Source: Chitinophaga sp. LS1
GTDB lineage: Bacteria; Bacteroidota; Bacteroidia; Chitinophagales; Chitinophagaceae
Assembly: GCF_034274695.1 (NCBI RefSeq)
Contig: NZ_CP128362.1
Span: forward strand, 5,954,501-6,018,500
Direction: 5' to 3'
Length of the DNA stretch: 64,000 nt
The notes under the pieces were generated by a model. It saw only the letters and a list, made by a program, of their open reading frames with translations, had not been told where the DNA came from and did no database searches. Position 1 is the stretch's first letter, and every line of letters starts with the position of its first letter. A program made the translations under genes and the position numbers. Below are positions 33,449 through 59,911 of the stretch, piece by piece.

Positions 33449-36400
33449 ATGAGATTTGTTAAGCAAACCGTGCTTTACTTTAAGGAGGGGACATCTGACA
33501 AAACTTACGAAATAGACCTATGTGAAACTGGCCCCGGACAATACATTGTGAACTTCCGCTATGGTAAGCGTGGAGCTGCACTCAAAGAAGGTAGTAAAAC
33601 TGCAACCCCCGTTTCTCTGGAGGAAGCTACCGCTATTTTCGATGCATTGGAAAAGGAAAAACGTAGCAAAGGATACACCGGCGAGCAGGATGGTGTCGCC
33701 ACCACCGCTTATACCAGTGTCGCTGTCGATGATGTGACTGACCCTGTCCACAAAGTAATACTGAAACGACTGGACGATGCCGTGACCGGCAAACAATCCT
33801 ACAAGACAAAATGGTCCACATCCCGCGTGATCTGGGCTGCCGGTGAACACAAGATCCGTGCAGCCGCTCCGGTTATTCTGCGCCTGATTGAAAAAGGCAA
33901 CGCTATGCAGCGTTACGCTGGTATCTGGGCATTGGGCAGATGTGGGGATCCGGCTGCCGTGTCGTTGGTCAGTTCCTATATAGATAATAGTACTTACCCG
34001 CAATACCTGCGACAGATGGCTGCCAACGCAGTCCTGCAACTCCTGTCAGGCGAAGAACGCACGACTTTTATTGCGCGCTCCCTGCATGCCCTGCCACCTG
34101 AGTTCCAGGATGCCATCAATGCTAAGGATTTATATGCCCTTACGCAACTGCTGGACCAGCGGGTGATGCAGCTCAATGAGCCTGGTTACCAGTTGCTGGA
34201 AGACCTGTATATTGTAGCTGCTGATATTGTTCCTGTAAGGCAACTCCTCTATGCTTTATTCGCCGCTTTACCTTTACGTCCATCTTACTTCCGGCATATC
34301 CGCCACTTATATAAACAGGCGGAACTGCGGGATGATCATGCATTGACGGCGCTCTTTTCTGTGCGCTTTGAAAGGGAAAGACAACTGTTCAGCACCTCCG
34401 GAAAACCGCCTGCGGAACTGAAAAAGCCGATGAGTAAACTGGCCTATTCCAACCGTACCCGTCGTCATTTCAGGAACAGGACCCTGCGCCACCTGCAGGA
34501 ACTCGGACAACGTACGGATGTTGAATATGTAAAACTGGCTACAGCCCTGTTATTACAATATGACGGGAATGTGTATAAAGAAGCCGCTTACAGCAGAAAC
34601 GTGTATCAATATGATGCTACTACCCGCCGTTATATTACCCGGGCTATCCGTTATCCAGCTAATTCCAACGCGGTTTACCTGAACTATATTTTAAGAGGTA
34701 ACCAGGTGGATCTACAGCTCGTGGGTAATAATTCCCGTTGGGAATTTAAGGATCCCGAAGCGGGAAAACCTGCGGCGCAGTCTAAACCGGAACCACCTAA
34801 AAAAGAAGGCTTCCTCAACCAGATCGCCGGTATCTTCAAAACGCCTAAAAAGGACGAAGGTATACAGCCAAAAGAATCACTGGAAAAGGCGGTCAAAGAA
34901 AATGACGAACCGCACAGCGATATTCCTTTCCGTTCGCTCTGGCACCAGTTACCACAGGCATTCATCCAGCTGCTTATCAGTAGCCGTATGGAAGAGATTC
35001 ATGCCTTTGCGTATTCGGAATTACAAGCCAGTCCGCAGTTCGAATCACTCAAAGAAAAGATAGATGCCAATGTCATTGCCGGTCTGCTGATCAATCCATT
35101 CCAGATCCCTCAGCGTTTCGGTCTGTCTCTGGCTATAGAAAAATATAATCCTGCTGCTCCTTCCCTCCCACTGTTTGTGGCGATGATAAACAGCCCATTT
35201 AATGAAGCCCGCGAACTGGGTATTGAATGGATCAAAACGCATATCGAATTCTGTGTTCAGGATACTGAATTTGTCACTGCCCTGATCTTTGCGGCATATG
35301 ACGATGTGAGACAAATAGCCATAGACCGCCTTTCTACCACACTCTTACCACTGGATAAGAGCCGCCTGGTAGTAGGTAGAGCAGTGAGCGTATTACTGGA
35401 ACAGCGTCAGCCAAATGAGGCCGTATACAATCTGCTTACTAAAGGTTGCCGTGTATTAGAACAATACTCAGTCGCCGCATTGCAGGAAGTGGATGCAAAG
35501 ATCGTGGAAGACTTATTGAAATCAGGTATTCCACCAGCAGAAGCATTTGGTGTACGCCTCCTGTTACTGAAAAAAGGCCCTGTTCAGTTATCTGACGAAT
35601 TGATTGTAAGCATCCTTGAAAATGCCTACCAGCCTGTAAGAGAAGGTGGTATTGCGATATTAAGCAGTATGGGTAATGCTGAACTTATTTCCCGTCCTGC
35701 TTTGTTATTGCAAACCTGCATCGCTTCTTACTCAGATGTACGGCAGGGTATTCGTCCTGTGCTGGCAAGGCTTGTAAAGGACTACAACGACCTCGCTGTA
35801 TGGCTGGTGAACGAACTCGTGCCTTTGCTCATGCGAAAAGAAACTTCTGAAGGGTTGCACAATGACATCGCTAATATTCTTGGCAATGAACTCGTGGGGC
35901 ACCTGCATGATATCGATAAGGCTACTGCTTTAAGACTCACCTATTCCAACTACCGCGCTACACAGGCATTTGGTGTACTTGTATTGGAAAAATATATTCC
36001 ACCTGCAGAATTAACCCTCAAACAGGTGATCGCTACCGGCAATCATGAACTGAGAGAAGTACGTGAATGGTGCTGGCGTTTTTATGAGCAGCAACTTCCA
36101 CGTATCCGCTACGAGAGGGACGATGCTATCGGTTTACTGGATGCAAAATGGGATGATACCCGCACATTCGCCATGCAGTTTTTCCGTACCCACTTCAGGG
36201 ATGAAGACTGGTCGCCGGAAACCCTCGTTGCCATTGCAGACAGCGTGAACCCAATCGTACAGGCTTTTGGCAGGGAATTGCTGACCCGTTTCTTCAAAGC
36301 AGAAGACGGTCTCAACTACCTCCTGAAACTCAGTCAGCACCCGGGCGTAAGTATGCAAACCTTTGCGACCAACTACCTGGCTCAATATGCAGCTGGTGAA

Positions 36401-36682
36401 CCGGATCGCTTGCGGGAACTTGAGTTTTATTTCCGCTCTGTATTATCCAGGGTGAATAAAGCAAGAGTGGCCAAAGAACGCATCTTTGCATTCCTGGAAC
36501 AGGAAGCCCTGAAATCGGACGAAGCTGCGCAATATATTGCGGTGATCATTGCACATATCTCTGCAACAGTGGCTATTGGCGACAAAGCACGTTGCATTCA
36601 GATCATGCGCAACATCCACGAACAATATCCGGATATTACGCTGCCTGTTCAATTTATTGCTATTCCTGAGCATTCATCTTAA
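33449..36682 (+). CDS. WGR-domain and HEAT/ARM-repeat protein (retron accessory)
   Basis: 1077 residues, no signal peptide. Residues 1-78 form a WGR domain (TVLYFKEGTSDKTYEIDL; NFRYGKRG at 35-42 in place of the WGR core, with the Trp replaced by Tyr). WGR domains bind nucleic-acid ends in PARPs and occur in MolR-type bacterial proteins. From about 90 to the end it is helical, with degenerate HEAT/ARM repeats (for example AGIWALGRCGDPAAVSLVSSYI), interrupted by a Lys/Pro-rich loop near 447-480. It is the first gene of a run with a SWIM protein and a retron RT, starting 11 bases before the SWIM gene. I recall ARM-repeat plus WHSWIM proteins as the accessory pair of type XIII retrons. It probably acts as a sensor or effector scaffold; no catalytic motif was seen. 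Confidence 0.85.
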   Translation: MRFVKQTVLYFKEGTSDKTYEIDLCETGPGQYIVNFRYGKRGAALKEGSKTATPVSLEEATAIFDALEKEKRSKGYTGEQDGVATTAYTSVAVDDVTDPVHKVILKRLDDAVTGKQSYKTKWSTSRVIWAAGEHKIRAAAPVILRLIEKGNAMQRYAGIWALGRCGDPAAVSLVSSYIDNSTYPQYLRQMAANAVLQLLSGEERTTFIARSLHALPPEFQDAINAKDLYALTQLLDQRVMQLNEPGYQLLEDLYIVAADIVPVRQLLYALFAALPLRPSYFRHIRHLYKQAELRDDHALTALFSVRFERERQLFSTSGKPPAELKKPMSKLAYSNRTRRHFRNRTLRHLQELGQRTDVEYVKLATALLLQYDGNVYKEAAYSRNVYQYDATTRRYITRAIRYPANSNAVYLNYILRGNQVDLQLVGNNSRWEFKDPEAGKPAAQSKPEPPKKEGFLNQIAGIFKTPKKDEGIQPKESLEKAVKENDEPHSDIPFRSLWHQLPQAFIQLLISSRMEEIHAFAYSELQASPQFESLKEKIDANVIAGLLINPFQIPQRFGLSLAIEKYNPAAPSLPLFVAMINSPFNEARELGIEWIKTHIEFCVQDTEFVTALIFAAYDDVRQIAIDRLSTTLLPLDKSRLVVGRAVSVLLEQRQPNEAVYNLLTKGCRVLEQYSVAALQEVDAKIVEDLLKSGIPPAEAFGVRLLLLKKGPVQLSDELIVSILENAYQPVREGGIAILSSMGNAELISRPALLLQTCIASYSDVRQGIRPVLARLVKDYNDLAVWLVNELVPLLMRKETSEGLHNDIANILGNELVGHLHDIDKATALRLTYSNYRATQAFGVLVLEKYIPPAELTLKQVIATGNHELREVREWCWRFYEQQLPRIRYERDDAIGLLDAKWDDTRTFAMQFFRTHFRDEDWSPETLVAIADSVNPIVQAFGRELLTRFFKAEDGLNYLLKLSQHPGVSMQTFATNYLAQYAAGEPDRLRELEFYFRSVLSRVNKARVAKERIFAFLEQEALKSDEAAQYIAVIIAHISATVAIGDKARCIQIMRNIHEQYPDITLPVQFIAIPEHSS

Positions 36683-36693
36683 ACCCTGATCAC

Positions 36694-38340
36694 ATGTTAT
36701 TCAATTATAGATATAGCGGCAGTACGCAGGTATATAGCAATGCTACATCAGCAGGAATTTCATTTTCACCTGATACCCGGCGTGAGCCTACTTTCTTTAA
36801 CGGAAAGCTACACAAGAAACTCGCTTTCAGGGAAGCCATTTCTGCATTGCATGATGTAGTAGTGTCAGATCTGCGATTCAAGCCAAAAGATAAAACAGAA
36901 TATAAAGCTTGGGCTGCTCAGCAGGAAGATGTATGGCTGGCTGAATTCATGGGGAATTATGATGCAGCTGCTGCTCAGAGCAAAATAAAACTGATTCGTG
37001 AAGAGCTGAGCGCTGTGAATGCAGAGCGGGATAAACTGATGGCTCCTTATTACAAATCCCGCCGTAATTATTTCGATTACCTGTACCAGAAAGACAAAGA
37101 TGCCTGGTTTGTACTGGATCCTGTGATCAGCGTACATCCGGATGAAATCTTTTTCGAGTGCTTTAGCCAGGATGAATCTGCCTACGGTAAACTGAGCGCC
37201 AGTTACAACGTATTCAAAGAAGTCAACGAATTTCAGTGTGGTACGACCAACATTGACTATTCCGCAAACCTCTATAATGAGTTCCAGAAAATACGTGATT
37301 ACAAGGAGACGACCTTTACGGTGGATCCTTCCGGTTTTGCTGTGCAAACGACAAAAGAAGAACTCTTCAAAGAAGTAAAAATAGACCTGCCGGATAGCTG
37401 GGTCAGAGGTTTCCTGCAGGTAAGTTCTGCCATGACCTTACCCGCTGCCAGCTTTGATCTGCATCCTATGGATGTCTATAACTTCTGTCAGCAACTGCGT
37501 CGTTTCAAAGAAAAGAAAGGGCCCCGTTCTATTCGTTTTATTCTGGAACCCGGCCAGCCAGTCAAAGCCATCTTTGATCCATGGGGTACAATGATCGTTT
37601 GTGCGAGATCTGTATACACCGGTGCGCAGCGCAAAGAGATCTGTATATGGGGACGTCGTCGTCTTTTAATATTAGAAAGACTTATTCCAGTAGCAAAGAA
37701 ATTCACCGTTCACCTCACTGGTAATGGACTGCCGTCCTTCTATATCGCTGACCTGGGAGATATGCAGTTCACACTGGGTTTATCCGGTTGGACGGCCAAC
37801 GATTGGTCACGTTGCGGACAATTTGATCTCATGGCGCCAAGAGGCACTGTAGATGATGCGACGAAACAAATTATTTATGGCGACCTGCAACAGCATTGGT
37901 TTGGTACGCCCGAACAGATAGCTGCGCGAACCGGTACTCCGAAAGCTTCGGTACTGGCGGCATTGGGCATCTATACACAGGCAGGGAAAGCCATTTACGA
38001 TTTACATTCAGGTTATTATCGCCTGCGTGAACTGAGCCGTGATCCATTGCCACTGGATGCATTACGTTTCTCCAATCCCGCAGAAGCCGCTGCCAGCAGG
38101 ATTGTGGGCAAAGTGAAGTTCACCGCGAAGGATGTACCGGGTGTAGGTGTACAACTGGAAGGTTCTATGCCGGCACAAAATCGTTCATACCGCCCCGTTA
38201 TAGTGATTGATGCAGATGAACGCATGGCTTCTGCCCATTGCGACTGTAATCACTACCAGATGAACAAGTTGCACAAAGGCCCCTGTGAACACATGCTGGC
38301 ATTGAGAATGGCATACGAACAGGAAAAACAAAAAGTATAA
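36694..38340 (+). CDS. Winged-helix / SWIM zinc-finger protein (retron accessory)
   Basis: 548 residues, cytoplasmic. Near residues 390-445 there is a winged-helix-like region (IYGDLQQHWFGTPEQIAART, then TPKASVLAALGIYTQAGKAIYD). The C-terminus carries a SWIM zinc finger with ligands Cys516, Cys518, Cys531 and His533 (HCDCNHYQ...GPCEH). SWIM fingers bind DNA or protein. The order wH-SWIM is the feature I recall as WHSWIM of type XIII retrons. It starts 11 bases after the WGR/HEAT stop. About 125 bases after its own stop begins the retron ncRNA, so the proteins, RNA and RT form one unit. Whether it is toxin, nuclease-free adaptor or regulator is unknown. Confidence 0.85.
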   Translation: MLFNYRYSGSTQVYSNATSAGISFSPDTRREPTFFNGKLHKKLAFREAISALHDVVVSDLRFKPKDKTEYKAWAAQQEDVWLAEFMGNYDAAAAQSKIKLIREELSAVNAERDKLMAPYYKSRRNYFDYLYQKDKDAWFVLDPVISVHPDEIFFECFSQDESAYGKLSASYNVFKEVNEFQCGTTNIDYSANLYNEFQKIRDYKETTFTVDPSGFAVQTTKEELFKEVKIDLPDSWVRGFLQVSSAMTLPAASFDLHPMDVYNFCQQLRRFKEKKGPRSIRFILEPGQPVKAIFDPWGTMIVCARSVYTGAQRKEICIWGRRRLLILERLIPVAKKFTVHLTGNGLPSFYIADLGDMQFTLGLSGWTANDWSRCGQFDLMAPRGTVDDATKQIIYGDLQQHWFGTPEQIAARTGTPKASVLAALGIYTQAGKAIYDLHSGYYRLRELSRDPLPLDALRFSNPAEAAASRIVGKVKFTAKDVPGVGVQLEGSMPAQNRSYRPVIVIDADERMASAHCDCNHYQMNKLHKGPCEHMLALRMAYEQEKQKV

Positions 38341-38419
38341 AAAAATATAGCAGGGAATAGCAGAAAATTGAAGAAAAGAAAGTATCTTTAATCCCGTAAT
38401 AAAACACTTCATGAAAGTT

Positions 38420-38456
38420 GGATTCACCAACATGGATGAAAACAATTTTTCAGAAA
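38420..38456 (+). repeat. Short dispersed repeat, copy 1
   Basis: GGATTCACC-AACATGGATGAAAAC-type 37-base element, about 80% identical to a second copy at 42499-42535. It lies just downstream of the SWIM gene and 9 bases before the retron ncRNA a1 repeat. Confidence 0.6.
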
Positions 38457-38464
38457 TAAAGTTC

Positions 38465-38701
38465 TTTGTAAAGAGGAAATAATTGCACTTGCGCCCGTAA
38501 AAGGGACGAATGATGTTTCGTCATTCAGGTAACATGACTATACATGCTTCACTAAATGCAATCTTTACTTTGGGAGGGGCGTACTAGTAGTGATTTTACA
38601 GTACTTGCCCCAGGGGCCCTAAAATCACCACTAGTACGCCCCTCCCTGGAGTTGATTGATTTAGTCAAAGGCTTGCACGAAGGCCATTTCCTCTTTACAA
38701 A
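38465..38701 (+). ncRNA. Retron msr-msd non-coding RNA
   Basis: The region has the layout of a retron ncRNA. The a1 repeat (38465-38480) and a2 repeat (38686-38701) are 16-base perfect reverse complements that would pair the ends of the RNA. Just inside a1 is a short msr-type hairpin (38508-38513 with 38521-38526, 7-base loop, or an alternative stem 38505-38510 with 38517-38522). Then comes a very long msd-type hairpin: 38572-38598 pairs with 38620-38646 with a single A-C mismatch (26 of 27), extendable by five pairs around a one-base bulge, and capped by a GC-rich apical stem at 38607-38617. a2 ends 62 bases before the RT start codon. Which G is the branching residue is not resolved from sequence. 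Confidence 0.9.
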
Positions 38702-38763
38702 TTAACCTCTCTCTTCTGCTCCCCTGCTTACATTCATTCATCATTTTTATCTGAACTGGAATT

Positions 38764-40257
38764 ATGTCAGCAGGTTTGACCCGTCAACAATTATATGATA
38801 AGATCCGTGCTTCTTCTAAAGAAGAAGTAATTCTGGAAGAAATGATACGCCTTGGTTTCTGGGCGAAAAATGAACAGGTACCTAATGTACCCGAAACATT
38901 TATTCGTAAAGAAGGTGAGCTGCGTAGAGAATTGAACGACCTCCTTAGCGAACAAGCCAAATACAGAAATAAACAACAGGTACTCACGGACATGCGTAAA
39001 GCCCGCATGGCTGCCGCCAAGGCAAAACGTGCTGAGACCAAAAAACGGAATGAAGAGAAACGCCAGCAGCGCGCCGCAGCCTGGGCAGAAGAAAAGTCGA
39101 AATCTATCGTCTATCTCGGTGAAGACGTTTCTGCAGGATTAAATAAAACCTCCTCCAATACTGAACTGCTACAGCGCTTCGGCCTCCCGCTGCTTCATGA
39201 TGCCGTACAGCTCTCCGCAGCTATGGGCATTACCCTCGGTAAACTACGTTTCCTGGCATTTGACAGGAAGGTAGGTACTATCTCCCATTACAAGCGCTTT
39301 TACCTGCCTAAGAAGTCAGGTGGCCGCAGACTGATCTCTGCTCCTATGCCACAACTAAAAGCTGCACAGTACTGGGTGCTGGAAAATATCCTGTATAAGG
39401 TACCCAACAGCGAAGCCGCACATGGTTTCGTGCCGGGCAAATCCATCGTGACCAATGCAACTAATCACGTAGGTCAGGATGTGGTGATCAATATCGATCT
39501 GAAAGACTTTTTCCCGACAATTGAATATAAACGTGTGAAAGGGCTCTTTATAAAACTTGGTTACAGCGAACAACTGGCCACTATTCTCGGCCTGCTATGT
39601 ACTGAGCCCGAAGTAGACCAGGTAGCCCTGGACGGCCAGGAATATTTTGTGGCCAATACTCCCCGGCACCTGCCACAGGGTGCGCCCAGCAGTCCGGCCA
39701 TCACAAACCTTATTTGCTATGGTCTGGACAAGCGTTTTGAAGGTCTGGCTAAAAAGTTTGGGTATACCTACTCCCGCTATGCAGATGATATGACTTTCTC
39801 TACCAAAGGCGAACCTGCCGACAAGATCGGTCAGTTACTCTGGTCAGTAAAGCAGGTCGTGAAAGAAGAAGGCTTCCACCTCCATCCTGATAAGTTGAAG
39901 GTAATGCGCAAAGGTGACAAACGGGAAGTAACCGGTATTGTGGTGAATGAGAAACTGAGCCTGGACAGGGATACCCTCCGTAAATTCAGGGCCTTGCTCC
40001 ACCAGATCAGCGTATCCGGATTGGCTAATAAAAAATGGGGCAATGGAAACATCATTAGCAGCATAGAAGGTTTTGCCAACTATGTAGCCATGGTAAAACC
40101 CGAAACCGGACGCCTGCTAAAAGATAAAATCAGGTTACTCCTGAACAGGGACGATATAAAATCCCAGGCACGCACTTTGATGACGGGTGCACCGGCTCCT
40201 GCTTCTGAAAAAAATCCGCCCCAAAAAGGAGATGATAATTGGTGGAATGTGGTGTAA
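38764..40257 (+). CDS. Retron reverse transcriptase
   Basis: 497 residues. Residues 1-130 are an N-terminal extension with a basic, helical, probably coiled-coil part (about 48-115). The RT domain follows: retron-specific NAxxH as NATNH at 231-235, motif A IDLKDFF at 244-250, PQGAPSSP at 304-311, catalytic YADD at 339-342, and the retron VTG motif at 389-391 within REVTGIVVNEK. NAxxH and VTG distinguish retron RTs from group II intron and DGR RTs. The C-terminal tail is Pro/Asp-rich. It should copy the msd part of the upstream RNA into multicopy single-stranded DNA linked to RNA. It is closed by a terminator at 40279. Confidence 0.95.
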   Translation: MSAGLTRQQLYDKIRASSKEEVILEEMIRLGFWAKNEQVPNVPETFIRKEGELRRELNDLLSEQAKYRNKQQVLTDMRKARMAAAKAKRAETKKRNEEKRQQRAAAWAEEKSKSIVYLGEDVSAGLNKTSSNTELLQRFGLPLLHDAVQLSAAMGITLGKLRFLAFDRKVGTISHYKRFYLPKKSGGRRLISAPMPQLKAAQYWVLENILYKVPNSEAAHGFVPGKSIVTNATNHVGQDVVINIDLKDFFPTIEYKRVKGLFIKLGYSEQLATILGLLCTEPEVDQVALDGQEYFVANTPRHLPQGAPSSPAITNLICYGLDKRFEGLAKKFGYTYSRYADDMTFSTKGEPADKIGQLLWSVKQVVKEEGFHLHPDKLKVMRKGDKREVTGIVVNEKLSLDRDTLRKFRALLHQISVSGLANKKWGNGNIISSIEGFANYVAMVKPETGRLLKDKIRLLLNRDDIKSQARTLMTGAPAPASEKNPPQKGDDNWWNVV

Positions 40258-40278
40258 ACACTAGCTTCTACTCCGGAA

Positions 40279-40309
40279 AAACGCTTTTACACAGGGAAAG
40301 GCGTTTTTT
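40279..40309 (+). terminator. Rho-independent terminator of the retron
   Basis: A 10-bp stem (40279-40288 with 40297-40306, one G-U pair) with an 8-base loop is followed by a T run. It closes the retron operon 22 bases after the RT stop. Confidence 0.88.
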
Positions 40310-40695
40310 TGTTGTTTAAACAACATTTTCTTTTTGTTAACAGATCATTAACTATTTCCTCTCACAATTGAACTATTTTGCGTCATCAACTGTTAATTTT
40401 TTAGTTGATCACACAAGCGAACTATCCTCTAATTTCGTTATCAAAAAACTATCAGCATAGTAATCTCCGTTATCACAAAACAAATCACAATGAAAAAACA
40501 TAGCAATGGGGGTCCTTTTATTACCTAAACTGTACAAGCAATTGTAGCTATCCACCCCAAAATTAATCAGTTTCAGCTCATTGCCTGCTTCTTAACTCTG
40601 ATACACCATCTCATGGACTGGATTTACTGTACAAGCCGGGAACTTGTCGGTAAGTCTACGAAATGTTATGTTCCGTTAATTTAAAATATCGGTAC
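40310..40695. other. Intergenic region between the retron and a hybrid histidine kinase
   Basis: No gene is supported. A 14-base perfect palindrome lies at 40311-40324 and a 7-bp hairpin at 40385-40391 with 40403-40409. CTGTACAAGC occurs twice (about 40531 and 40628). A 12-codon ORF (about 40490) is too short to call. Upstream regulation of the kinase gene may lie here. Confidence 0.5.
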
Positions 40696-42492
40696 ATGAA
40701 CCTACTACAACGAATCGTTACCACTGGTTGCAGTAACGTGAAGGCAACTTCATTGCAGGAGGTTGAAGACACACAACGAATTATCCGCTTCGTGAATACA
40801 TTGTGTCTGACCTGTGCTGCTATGTCCTTATCCCTCAGTTTGTGCTGTCACTACCTGATTGGAAACCAGATCATTGTGTGGCCAGCCTTCGCAGAAGCCG
40901 CTGCCTTTGTCACTATCATTTGCGTGAACTGGGTGGGAAGGCATACCCTCGCCAGCATTCTCCTGATCATCGTCAGCAATGTGACCATTCAATATTACAG
41001 CGCCGTCATGGGGCGGGTCACAGAATTTCATCTTCTATTTATTTTCCTGATTGGTTTATCATTGCTATTATTTCAGCGACCTTTTCTGAGAAGGTTAGCT
41101 ATTGGTATTACTATTGGGTGTTTTATGGCCGGCGAAATCAATATGTACTTTGGTTTCTATCCGCCTGCCATAAATTTTTCCACTGTTTTTCCTGTTGAAT
41201 TCGTGATTCGCTGGGCGACCATTCCATCCATCCTGATCCTGGATATGATGGTGTTCACCTTTTATATTAAGAATGCAGATAGACTACGGAACCGCGAAAT
41301 GACACAGGTACGGAAAATGCTGGAAACAGTCAGGCTACAAAATTCGGATCTGGAAGAGCTCACGGCCAAACTGGCCAGGGCTACAGATGCCAAGACTGTT
41401 TTTGTACGTGAAACCAGTCACGAGATCCGGACCCCGCTGAATGCCATCTTTGGTATCAGTCAGCTTTTGCAACTCAAAGTAGCGCAGGACAGAAGCCTCG
41501 CTCCCATCCGGCTGCTGGCCGATCACCTCTACGCCGCCAGTTTTAATACCAGGGAAATCATTAACAATGTATTAGAGTTTTCACGGATCGAAGCCGGCAA
41601 GGCCGATACGGCGCAAAACTCTTCGCTGGATATCAGGGAATGGCTGGACAATGTGGTGAATATACACCAATATATAGCAGGGGTTAAAATGGTCCGGATC
41701 CGGTATAATATATCAGAAGAAGTACCGGAATTCCTTTTCCTGGACAAAATGTTGCTCACGAAGATGATCAATAATCTCCTGTCAAATGCGATCAAGTTCA
41801 CAGCGAGTGAGAGCAATGTCTCCATTCATATTTTCCCTAAAGGAGAACGGTTGAATATCACCGTGGCCGATCAGGGAGAAGGGATCAGCGAAGAGAGGCA
41901 GGCTACTATTTTTGATGCCTTTGTATCAGAGCGGAATATATTCCTGGAAGGTACTGGTTTGGGCCTGCACATTACGCGTCACCTGGCGGAAGCTATGGGT
42001 GGCACTATAGATGTGAAGAGTCAGATAGGCATTGGTACGACCTTCACGGTATGTCTGCCGCTGGAAGGTGCAGCAGGCTTGCCGGGTAAAGACCTGAAAG
42101 ACTGGCCGGAAAGAATGATGAACCTGAATGCCGCCAGCATCCTGATTATAGAAGATGATAAAATGAGTCAGATGGTTTTATCACGGTTCCTTTGTAGTTT
42201 GGGTAGCAGGGTTACGCTGGCCAGCGATGGTGTGGAGGGCATGCTCCTGGGCAGGGCTTCAAAACCGGATATCATTATCCTGGATGCGCATATTCCGGGC
42301 ATGAGCGGCAAAGATACACTTACTCATATTCGCGAAGATGATGTACTGAAAAATGTGCCGGTCATCATCGCCAGTGGAGATGCGTTTAATGAAGCCAGTG
42401 AAGAAATGATCAATGCAGGGGCGAATGAATACCTGGTAAAACCTATTGAGTTCAAGGCATTGCATGCCACGCTTACGAAATATATTGAATAA
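40696..42492 (+). CDS. Hybrid sensor histidine kinase with receiver domain
   Basis: About 598 residues from the ATG at 40696 (an upstream in-frame ATG at 40663 adds 11 residues). Six hydrophobic segments (residues about 34-190) form a membrane sensor with little periplasmic mass. A coiled linker leads to HisKA (RETSHEIRTPLN, phospho-His about 242). HATPase_c follows (NLLSNAIKFT, DQGEGISEE, GTGLGLHI). A C-terminal receiver domain has phospho-Asp about 530 in IIILDAHIPGMSG and a conserved Lys in YLVKPIEF. There is no output domain, so signalling passes to another protein. It is a clear paralogue of the gene at 47104. Confidence 0.92.
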   Translation: MNLLQRIVTTGCSNVKATSLQEVEDTQRIIRFVNTLCLTCAAMSLSLSLCCHYLIGNQIIVWPAFAEAAAFVTIICVNWVGRHTLASILLIIVSNVTIQYYSAVMGRVTEFHLLFIFLIGLSLLLFQRPFLRRLAIGITIGCFMAGEINMYFGFYPPAINFSTVFPVEFVIRWATIPSILILDMMVFTFYIKNADRLRNREMTQVRKMLETVRLQNSDLEELTAKLARATDAKTVFVRETSHEIRTPLNAIFGISQLLQLKVAQDRSLAPIRLLADHLYAASFNTREIINNVLEFSRIEAGKADTAQNSSLDIREWLDNVVNIHQYIAGVKMVRIRYNISEEVPEFLFLDKMLLTKMINNLLSNAIKFTASESNVSIHIFPKGERLNITVADQGEGISEERQATIFDAFVSERNIFLEGTGLGLHITRHLAEAMGGTIDVKSQIGIGTTFTVCLPLEGAAGLPGKDLKDWPERMMNLNAASILIIEDDKMSQMVLSRFLCSLGSRVTLASDGVEGMLLGRASKPDIIILDAHIPGMSGKDTLTHIREDDVLKNVPVIIASGDAFNEASEEMINAGANEYLVKPIEFKALHATLTKYIE

Positions 42493-42498
42493 AAAAGG

Positions 42499-42535
42499 GG
42501 ATTCACCCACAGGGATGAAAACCATTTTCAGAGAA
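42499..42535 (+). repeat. Short dispersed repeat, copy 2
   Basis: About 80% identical to the element at 38420-38456. It lies 7 bases past the hybrid kinase stop and directly before a terminator. Confidence 0.6.
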
Positions 42536-42569
42536 AAGAGGCCGTATTACTCATGATACGGCCTCTTTT
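42535..42569. terminator. Bidirectional terminator
   Basis: A 13-bp stem (42535-42547 with 42556-42568), loop of 8, lies between the convergent kinase gene and the secreted protein gene. Confidence 0.88.
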
Positions 42570-59537: not shown

Positions 59538-59654
59538 GCTGTTTTAATAATTGTAATAGTTGAAAGGTTCCCGACGGAATAGATCATTCAGCATGATAAG
59601 CGTAATATCATTGTATATCCCGAAGCTTTTCACCCGAAAGCGCTGAATGGATCT

Positions 59655-59825
59655 ATTGCATCGTGGCAGGTCTTCTGGCTCCCTGATTTTCCGGCGGCCT
59701 TCCCATCCATGGTGGACAGTGGCATAGAGTAGAACCGGAAATAATACTCAGGTTACAGCTACGGGGATAGCTCCGGTTTTGCACCGGATTCCCTTTTAAG
59801 CCTATCTAGTGACAGGCACCAAATG
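59655..59825 (-). promoter_or_regulatory. Cobalamin riboswitch
   Basis: On the minus strand this region has the B12-box AGCCAGAAGACCTGCC near the 3' end (about 59663-59678), and the conserved core GGGAATCCGGTGCAAAACCGG leading into GCTATCCCCGTAGCTGT (about 59755-59795). A TGCCTG...AGGC closing arm is present near 59800-59822. These are the defining elements of the adenosylcobalamin riboswitch. It ends about 120 bases before the BtuG-like ATG and should repress the B12 uptake operon when cobalamin is plentiful. Confidence 0.93.
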
Positions 59826-59911
59826 CGGCACAAACCTACACTATGGGGGTGGAATAACCAAATTGAAACGTTTTTTCGCCTATCTTGCCGCAAATTTTTA
59901 AATAATCCGTT

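What the first reader, a model, noticed from the sequence alone, without database searches (positions are those of the whole stretch)
33449..40257. Complete retron locus with WGR/HEAT and WH-SWIM accessory proteins and a readable ncRNA
Four parts lie in one orientation: a WGR + HEAT/ARM protein, a winged-helix/SWIM protein 11 bases later, a non-coding RNA, and a reverse transcriptase with NATNH, YADD and VTG motifs, closed by a terminator. Established knowledge: retrons are tripartite anti-phage systems, and I recall ARM plus WHSWIM proteins as the accessory pair of type XIII, one of the least studied types. How it senses phage and what kills the cell is not known to me. Inference: the ncRNA-msDNA or its RT complex restrains one of the two accessory proteins, and phage interference releases it.
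Basis: partly seen in the sequence, partly recalled or inferred. Interest (0 to 1): 0.92.

Follow-up and report, generated by a model that had tools for sequence, protein, structure and literature searches.

The report
Type XIII retron with clamp-like partner
This is a complete bacterial anti-virus element (a type XIII retron): a reverse transcriptase, its template RNA and two partner proteins; the template's stem evolves as if the DNA copied from it is what matters, and one partner is predicted to look like the ring-shaped clamp that holds DNA polymerases on DNA.

Summary
Window 33449-40311 is an intact type XIII retron of a Chitinophaga-type genome: WGR-HEAT gene, SWIM gene, ncRNA, RT, terminator-like hairpin. 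All three proteins match PADLOC type XIII models. RT, SWIM and ncRNA occur in the same 44 of 78 same-genus genomes, mostly at two chromosomal neighbourhoods. The ncRNA shows strong covariation and is found in 74 of 84 type XIII RT loci from several phyla.

Type XIII is a known kind. How it acts is inference: msDNA probably restrains a DNA-binding pair.

The parts
33449..36682 (+). CDS, 1077 aa: N-terminal WGR domain (about residues 11-81) then a HEAT-type solenoid of about 1000 aa; no catalytic domain recognised
   Evidence: WGR_XIII; WGR, HEAT_2; AlphaFold2 mean pLDDT 85; HEAT-type proteins
36694..38340 (+). CDS, 548 aa: SWIM_XIII protein
36793..37803 (+). codons 34-370 of the SWIM protein: predicted PCNA-like sliding-clamp fold with a helical insertion at about residues 60-140
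   Evidence: prediction only; no sequence match
37855..38028 (+). codons about 388-445: probable winged helix
   Evidence: helix/strand order; weak HTH/WH Pfam hits in a few relatives
38206..38307 (+). codons 505-538: SWIM zinc finger; C516, C518 and C531 invariant in 34 aligned sequences, H533 in 90% or more
38462..38705 (+). retron ncRNA (msr-msd)
   Evidence: (271.9 bits at 38462-38703)
38465..38480 (+). a1
   Evidence: compensatory G-C/A-U change in 7 of 40
38508..38526 (+). msr hairpin GAATGATG-TTT-CGTCATTC
   Evidence: compensatory in 12 of 40
38551..38665 (+). minimal msd: region enclosed by the helices with the A.C (DNA-like) signature
38572..38646 (+). long msd stem-loop; constant GGGAGGGG base, hypervariable apical arm 38585-38594; own A.C deviation A38589.C38629 (read from the sequence)
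38686..38701 (+). a2
38764..40257 (+). CDS, 497 aa: retron reverse transcriptase, type XIII
40274..40311 (+). intrinsic terminator-like hairpin

Best explanation
A complete and probably working type XIII retron. SUPPORTED BY SEQUENCE: a structured ncRNA sits upstream of the RT; its main msd helices (within 38551-38665) are under selection as the reverse-transcribed DNA strand, so the RT very likely makes a branched msDNA with a long DNA hairpin; RT, ncRNA and the two accessory genes form one unit. PREDICTED: the SWIM protein is a PCNA-like clamp followed by a winged helix and a zinc finger; the WGR protein is a WGR domain (nucleic-acid-binding in other proteins, recalled) on a large HEAT scaffold. 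INFERRED: in the resting cell RT-msr-msDNA and the two proteins form a complex in which the msDNA hairpin fills the DNA-binding surfaces of the clamp/winged-helix protein. A phage DNA-binding protein that competes for the hairpin, or a phage nuclease that destroys it, frees the pair, which engages chromosomal or phage DNA and stops replication and growth. Step by step: retron type XIII 0.97; msDNA made 0.9; clamp fold real 0.8; msDNA restrains the pair 0.5; DNA blockade by the freed clamp/HEAT pair rather than an unrecognised enzyme 0.3.
For: Type: PADLOC models for all three proteins. Unit: same 44 of 78 same-genus genomes for RT, SWIM and ncRNA; WGR-SWIM-RT order in 43 of 43 fetched same-genus loci; of the 66 loci with all three genes, 65 have the ncRNA, the exception (L104) being a deletion. 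msDNA: main msd helices A.C 32, G.U 3 against msr plus a1/a2 A.C 20, G.U 84 in 29 aligned ncRNAs (with the linker pairs 32 and 23, p 1.1e-6); alignment-free, in 39 units of loci outside that alignment, A.C 19, G.U 4, 17 units against 2. Clamp. No enzyme or membrane family found for either accessory. Restraint logic by analogy: in a preprint on retron-Kva2, type IX (abstract and passages seen, PMC13405049), a winged-helix accessory binds msDNA, and a phage helix-turn-helix protein, D5, binds the msDNA in a similar manner and so unleashes the HEPN effector.
Against: I found no experiment on this type. The clamp model has mean pLDDT 64.7 and pTM 0.49; a sequence-profile comparison with DnaN gave 0.2% probability (poor DnaN alignment) and Pfam shows no clamp family. 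The linker pairs inside the msd are G.U-rich (20 G.U, 0 A.C, 47 other), against a simple all-DNA reading of that stretch; with them the per-sequence count falls from 20:1 to 14:8. An RT-free SWIM plus DUF6493 pair lives in the same genome, so such pairs are not obviously toxic when unrestrained. A same-species strain lost SWIM, ncRNA and the RT 5' end together and has no assembled WGR 5' part, which fits several models. The invariant polar residues of the SWIM protein could be an unrecognised active site.
Confidence: 0.45

Rival explanations
1. Type XIII retron whose killing activity is an unrecognised enzyme: the invariant polar residues in the SWIM protein form an active site (for example a nuclease) that msDNA restrains; the clamp resemblance is only architectural.
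For: Dense invariant polar residues D142, H148, D150, E155, D160, E161, R201, E227, K229, R238, R321-R323, N369, D370 in 34 aligned sequences from several phyla; retron effectors are often enzymes or membrane proteins (passage of PMC13405049).
Against: No enzyme family in PADLOC, Pfam or NCBIfam; the 50 structural matches shown are clamps.
Confidence: 0.25
2. msDNA activates rather than restrains: the msDNA hairpin is loaded into the clamp-like protein as a guide or substrate, and the RT-msDNA-clamp-WGR complex itself recognises phage replication intermediates and blocks them.
For: Accessories look DNA-binding (WGR, winged helix, SWIM, clamp fold); WGR has the lowest identity of the three proteins in 43 of 43 loci; some relatives multiply ncRNAs with different stems.
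Against: The retron mechanism in the paper seen here is restraint of an effector; of three msd patterns scanned in viral contigs two gave no hit and one a single 19-mer hit.
Confidence: 0.2
3. The strand asymmetry reflects an antisense RNA hairpin read from the minus strand, not reverse-transcribed DNA.
For: An antisense transcript would show the same A.C excess in plus-strand coordinates (logic).
Against: The same ncRNAs lie next to a retron RT across phyla; the msr, a1/a2 and tail parts of the same RNA show the opposite, plus-strand RNA pattern.
Confidence: 0.07
4. The locus is no longer used for phage defence in Chitinophaga but kept for a housekeeping task, since it is position-conserved.
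For: 25 of 44 same-genus loci share one chromosomal site and 17 another downstream neighbourhood; the 44 gene sets are full length.
Against: 34 of 78 same-genus genomes lack it; a same-species strain has lost it; low WGR identity; patchy spread over phyla.
Confidence: 0.15

Closest known systems
Retron type XIII (classification of Mestre et al. 2020, recalled; that paper is not held) as modelled in PADLOC-DB 2.0.0
   Same: RT_XIII, WGR_XIII and SWIM_XIII match over nearly full length, HEAT-ARM_XIII more weakly; one gene cluster
   Different: Nothing seen in this window departs from the type. The predicted clamp fold, the DNA-strand signature and the ncRNA arrays of relatives appear in no paper I found (searches; term look-ups in PMC12548924, PMC9090908 and PMC8867640), but the key papers on retron types and RT-DNA that I tried are not held
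Retron-Kva2, type IX (PMC13405049; abstract and passages seen)
   Same: RT, ncRNA and two accessory proteins, one with a winged helix
   Different: Type IX has a HEPN RNase; no HEPN or other enzyme family was found here
Retron Ec86 and Ec67 RTs
   Same: Closest solved relatives of the RT by sequence (E 1e-63 and 6e-56)
   Different: Different accessory proteins (recalled); our RT has about 130 N-terminal residues outside that match
RT-free SWIM plus DUF6493/7824/7825 gene pair
   Same: SWIM paralogue found by the SWIM_XIII model (E 3e-49 in the own genome), next to a large partner gene
   Different: No RT hit in the neighbourhood and no ncRNA hit there; the partner belongs to other Pfam families, no WGR hit
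PCNA / DnaN sliding clamps
   Different: No sequence similarity (6-13% identity); extra helical insertion, winged helix and zinc finger

Membership tests
Retron (any type) | RT of the retron kind with NAxxH, YxDD and VTG motifs | tested here: met
   that these motifs define retron RTs is recalled
Retron (any type) | Adjacent ncRNA with a1/a2 pairing, msr hairpins and msd stem | tested here: met
Retron (any type) | Production of branched msDNA (RT-DNA) | not testable with these tools
   Only indirect: A.C/G.U asymmetry
Retron (any type) | Anti-phage activity | not testable with these tools
   needs bench work
Retron type XIII | RT matches the type XIII RT model best | tested here: met
   634.8 bits against 313.7 for the next model
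Retron type XIII | HEAT/ARM-type accessory protein (here with WGR) | tested here: met
   WGR_XIII 1176 bits, residues 1-1074; HEAT-ARM_XIII 97 bits
Retron type XIII | Winged-helix/SWIM accessory protein | tested here: met
   SWIM_XIII 784.7 bits, residues 1-545; the winged helix itself only by weak hits and predicted structure
DNA sliding clamp | Clamp fold | tested here: met
DNA sliding clamp | Sequence-profile match to clamp families | tested here: inconclusive
   No clamp family among the Pfam matches listed for 20 members at E up to 5; HHalign to DnaN 0.2% (only 4 of its 12 DnaN rows were full-length)
DNA sliding clamp | Ring oligomer around DNA | not testable with these tools
   no complex prediction available

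The most novel reading that the evidence does not exclude
Type XIII retrons are clamp-based: their SWIM accessory is a sliding-clamp homologue that msDNA hairpins occupy, and the msDNA hairpin is an evolvable DNA bait. Some lineages multiplex it, one RT serving an array of two to four ncRNAs that share a scaffold but carry unrelated DNA hairpins, so that several phage DNA-binding proteins can be sensed by one effector pair. The window holds the single-bait form.
Probability: 0.3. Interest if true: 0.87.

Novelty: new member of a known kind. Interest (0 to 1): 0.62.

Why it matters
I found no experimental work on type XIII. The predicted clamp fold suggests what the accessory pair might do and which domains to mutate. 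If the A.C against G.U comparison holds on retrons with sequenced RT-DNA, it tells from alignments alone which helices of a retron RNA act as DNA and roughly where the msd lies. The arrays, if they make several msDNAs, would be multiplexed retrons, of interest both for how retrons sense phages and for making several DNAs with one RT.

Tried and rejected
Considered and rejected: pseudogene or decayed retron (the 44 same-genus gene sets are full length). Another RT class such as a group II intron or DRT (NCBIfam group II and Drt2 scores far below their cut-offs). Phage- or plasmid-borne element (no phage record and one plasmid record at E 1e-60). msd stem copied from phages: three patterns of 19-20 bases scanned in viral contigs, two without a hit, one with a single 19-mer hit, which may be chance.

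Led nowhere or weak: DnaN profile comparison (most of its DnaN rows were read in a wrong frame; not redone). No PCNA profile was made. Pfam at E up to 5 listed no clamp family; the structure comparison lists only some matches, so other folds for the rest of the SWIM protein are not excluded. No RT tree was built. L213 (G238) shows several long inverted repeats but only hits of 13-14 bits besides one R1 match; left unresolved. Literature: searches listed no paper on type XIII; one search listed general retron papers, of which I looked up terms or passages in PMC12548924, PMC8867640, PMC9090908 and PMC13405049. Mestre 2020 and Khan 2024 are not held.

Choices that bear on counts: the msd group leaves out the pairs between its two main helices (alignment columns 157-162 with 260-269), a split I made after seeing the pair table; with them in, msd is A.C 32, G.U 23. 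In one search I dropped units under 35 bits, 2 of 70 units with stems under 12 Watson-Crick pairs, L212 (the same sequence as L135), L214 (orphan msd) and 20 units of Chitinophaga loci already in A4. At least one of its 68 stems is not an msd (L125 5555-5760 is an a1/a2 helix), and L166 looks irregular. 29 of the 68 units belong to loci also in the alignment. Relatedness of sequences was not modelled; the counts are cells or units, not events.
Full report
WHAT IS THERE. Three genes and one RNA lie on the + strand: WGR-HEAT 33449-36682, SWIM 36694-38340, ncRNA about 38462-38705, RT 38764-40257, with a terminator-like hairpin at 40274-40311. PADLOC names the three proteins as type XIII with near full-length matches. 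Pfam gives WGR, HEAT_2 and RVT_1 above cut-off and SWIM just below it. The best solved relatives of the RT by sequence are retron RTs Ec86 and Ec67. The window lies in an 8.67-Mb single-contig genome; the best-matching named contigs for the RT are of Chitinophaga and of [Flexibacter] sp. ATCC 35208.

SPREAD AND INHERITANCE. Of 78 same-genus genomes (own included), 44 have a full RT_XIII (E below 1e-180); the same 44 have a strong SWIM_XIII and the ncRNA (44 of 79, the extra genome being a same-species strain without it). I fetched up to 20 kb around the other 43 plus four same-order loci. In 43 of 43 the order is WGR, SWIM, a 337-472-nt gap, RT, with full-length genes. Flanking genes put 25 of 44 loci at one site, 17 at positions sharing a downstream neighbourhood, and 2 elsewhere. 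So within the genus it seems inherited largely in place. Identity to the window proteins is lowest for WGR (median 52%), then RT (70%), then SWIM (76%), in that order in 43 of 43 loci. By profile search 56 are WGR-SWIM-RT, 8 RT-WGR-SWIM, 2 SWIM-WGR(inverted)-RT, 3 SWIM-RT and 11 RT alone, several of these cut by contig ends. In phage records there was no match and in plasmids one at E 1e-60.

A NATURAL LOSS. In the same-species genome G479 (whose contig equals L104) window 36802 is joined to 38960; most of SWIM, the ncRNA and the first 65 RT codons are gone, and the first 2.3 kb of WGR is not assembled either. The element seems dispensable.

THE ncRNA. Forty distinct Chitinophaga ncRNAs (242 nt as cut in the window, 239-246 nt in the 39 others) give 83 pairs, 20 with changes on both sides. 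98.6% of cells are paired; sliding partners by 1-3 columns gives 40-45%, and double-change cells fall from 217 to at most 37. One of five measures, further pair types, does not exceed the column shuffle (41 against 41.3) (the structure was derived from this alignment, which favours it). a1/a2, two msr hairpins and the msd stem show compensatory change. The msd stem has a near-constant base (mean majority identity 0.98) and a hypervariable apical arm of 10 bp (0.52 on the 5' side). A covariance model built on these (R1) finds the ncRNA next to type XIII RTs of several phyla, E from 1e-59; it also hits the ncRNA's own opposite strand, because the RNA is largely self-complementary. A sequence HMM finds it in 74 of 84 loci; the ten without are L104 (deletion), L129, L133 and L148 (contig ends close to the RT), and L085, L131, L140, L162, L176, L181, in which no accessory pair was found nearby either. 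That HMM was trained on the 29 sequences of A7, seven Chitinophaga ones and eight hand-cut units of L125 and L135, so those match by construction; R1 had found several of the arrays before. Rfam at gathering score names no family for it in the window.

WHICH STRAND IS SELECTED. If a hairpin works as RNA, the tolerated deviation is G.U. If its DNA copy is what works, the tolerated deviation in the DNA is G.T, which reads as A.C in the RNA. In the model-based alignment of 29 ncRNAs (A7) the two main msd helices have A.C 32 and G.U 3, while a1/a2 plus the msr helices have A.C 20 and G.U 84 (Fisher p 1.5e-14; 1e-9 after dropping columns where G.U is the majority); by sequence, msd A.C exceeds G.U in 20, the reverse in 1, 8 ties, and msr G.U exceeds A.C in 26, the reverse in 1, 2 ties. 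Against it: the pairs between the two msd helices, set apart after I saw the table, are G.U 20, A.C 0, other 47; with them the msd has A.C 32 and G.U 23, p 1.1e-6, and the sequences split 14 to 8 with 7 ties. Those columns pair poorly across relatives and may form an internal loop. The alignment is fitted to the structure and so leans towards G.U, against the result. An alignment-free count of the longest stem in 68 units gave A.C 31, G.U 8, and 26 units against 4; restricted to the 39 units of loci not in A7 it is A.C 19, G.U 4, and 17 against 2. Forty Chitinophaga stems gave 29 and 0. The window stem itself has one such A.C, at 38589.38629 (read). The p-values ignore relatedness. The tail hairpin between msd and a2 (G.U 17, A.C 2, other 26) looks RNA-like, which hints that copying may start upstream of it; this is speculative. 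An antisense RNA would give the same asymmetry and is the rival reading. No positive control with a sequenced RT-DNA was run.

ARRAYS IN RELATIVES. Upstream of the RT some loci hold several ncRNAs. With HMM hits of at least 35 bits L125 has 4, L135 4, L123 3, and L126, L132 and L171 2 each. R1 gives three full-length matches in L132; L123 has a fourth, partial hit at its contig start, and L127 a second, weak one of 20 bits. In further genomes L209 has 2 hits of at least 35 bits and a third of 29, and L210 has three R1 matches; L212 is the same sequence as L135. The seven named loci (Saprospiraceae and other Bacteroidota, and one Planctomicrobium) are all metagenome bins; L209 and L210 are unnamed. 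In L125 each unit has its own a1/a2. Its roughly cut 5' scaffolds are 76-89% and 3' scaffolds 84-89% identical between units, but the msd stems only 48-58%, against 49% on average (58% at most) for shuffled ones. Distinct a1/a2 and stems argue against an assembly artefact. The window has one ncRNA.

A WIDER FAMILY OF PAIRS. The own genome also has a shorter SWIM paralogue followed by a DUF6493/DUF7824/DUF7825 protein without RT, and pairs of similar gene sizes occur in other genomes (partners there not checked by Pfam). The type XIII pair may be a branch of a wider SWIM-plus-large-partner module that was joined to a retron.

HOW IT LIKELY WORKS. From type IX (PMC13405049, abstract and passages): a winged-helix accessory sits on msDNA, a phage helix-turn-helix protein binds the msDNA in a similar manner, and the effector is freed. 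In type XIII the analogous msDNA binder would be the clamp/winged-helix/SWIM protein, with WGR-HEAT as scaffold or effector. Multiplying msd stems then makes sense as multiplying baits. What stops the cell remains open; physical blockade of DNA by a released clamp-like pair is my best guess, an undetected enzyme the main rival.

VERDICT. The locus is an ordinary, intact member of a known type on which I found no experimental work; the insights beyond it concern the type as a whole.

Noticed in passing
L125 4989-6112, L135 5799-7498, L123 1-1111, L132 1512-3106, L126 1-798, L127 6309-7501, L171 4988-5583, L209 7482-8364, L210 8288-9847: Type XIII retron loci with two to four tandem ncRNAs per RT, with differing msd stems; in L127 the second one rests on a weak hit.
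   Followed up: partly
G056:C11:1158677-1158752 (L204, L214): Orphan copy of the msd stem and its 5' flank, outside that genome's retron and matching no other part of the model; perhaps an msDNA-derived insertion or a relic.
   Followed up: partly
window 38398-38461 and 42489-42544: Short dispersed repeats: 17 other places in the own genome for the first, tens for both in G479; one copy lies directly upstream of the ncRNA.
   Followed up: no
L104 1-1183 (G479:C260): Same-species strain with a deletion of window 36803-38959 (most of SWIM, ncRNA, RT 5' end); WGR 5' part not assembled.
   Followed up: partly
L086 6679-10718; also L087, L088, L089, L093, L096-L098, L100: RT-free two-gene unit: SWIM protein plus a partner of about 900-1000 aa (DUF6493/7824/7825 in L086; by size only in the others).
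   Followed up: partly
L131, L140, L162, L176, L181, L085: RT_XIII relatives with neither ncRNA nor accessory pair found nearby; L131 has a 518-aa protein with a WGR-like start upstream.
   Followed up: no
L213 (G238:C107): Three 17-19-bp inverted repeats about 240 nt apart, spaced about 760 and 960 nt, with one R1 match and only weak HMM hits.
   Followed up: no
window 59647-59838 (-): Cobalamin riboswitch, 115 bits.
   Followed up: no
window 38670-38685: Tail hairpin GGCTTGCACGAAGGCC between msd and a2 shows an RNA-type wobble pattern, unlike the msd helices; may mark where copying starts.
   Followed up: no
window 33449-36682: The WGR-HEAT protein has lower identity to its relatives than RT or SWIM in 43 of 43 same-genus loci.
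   Followed up: no
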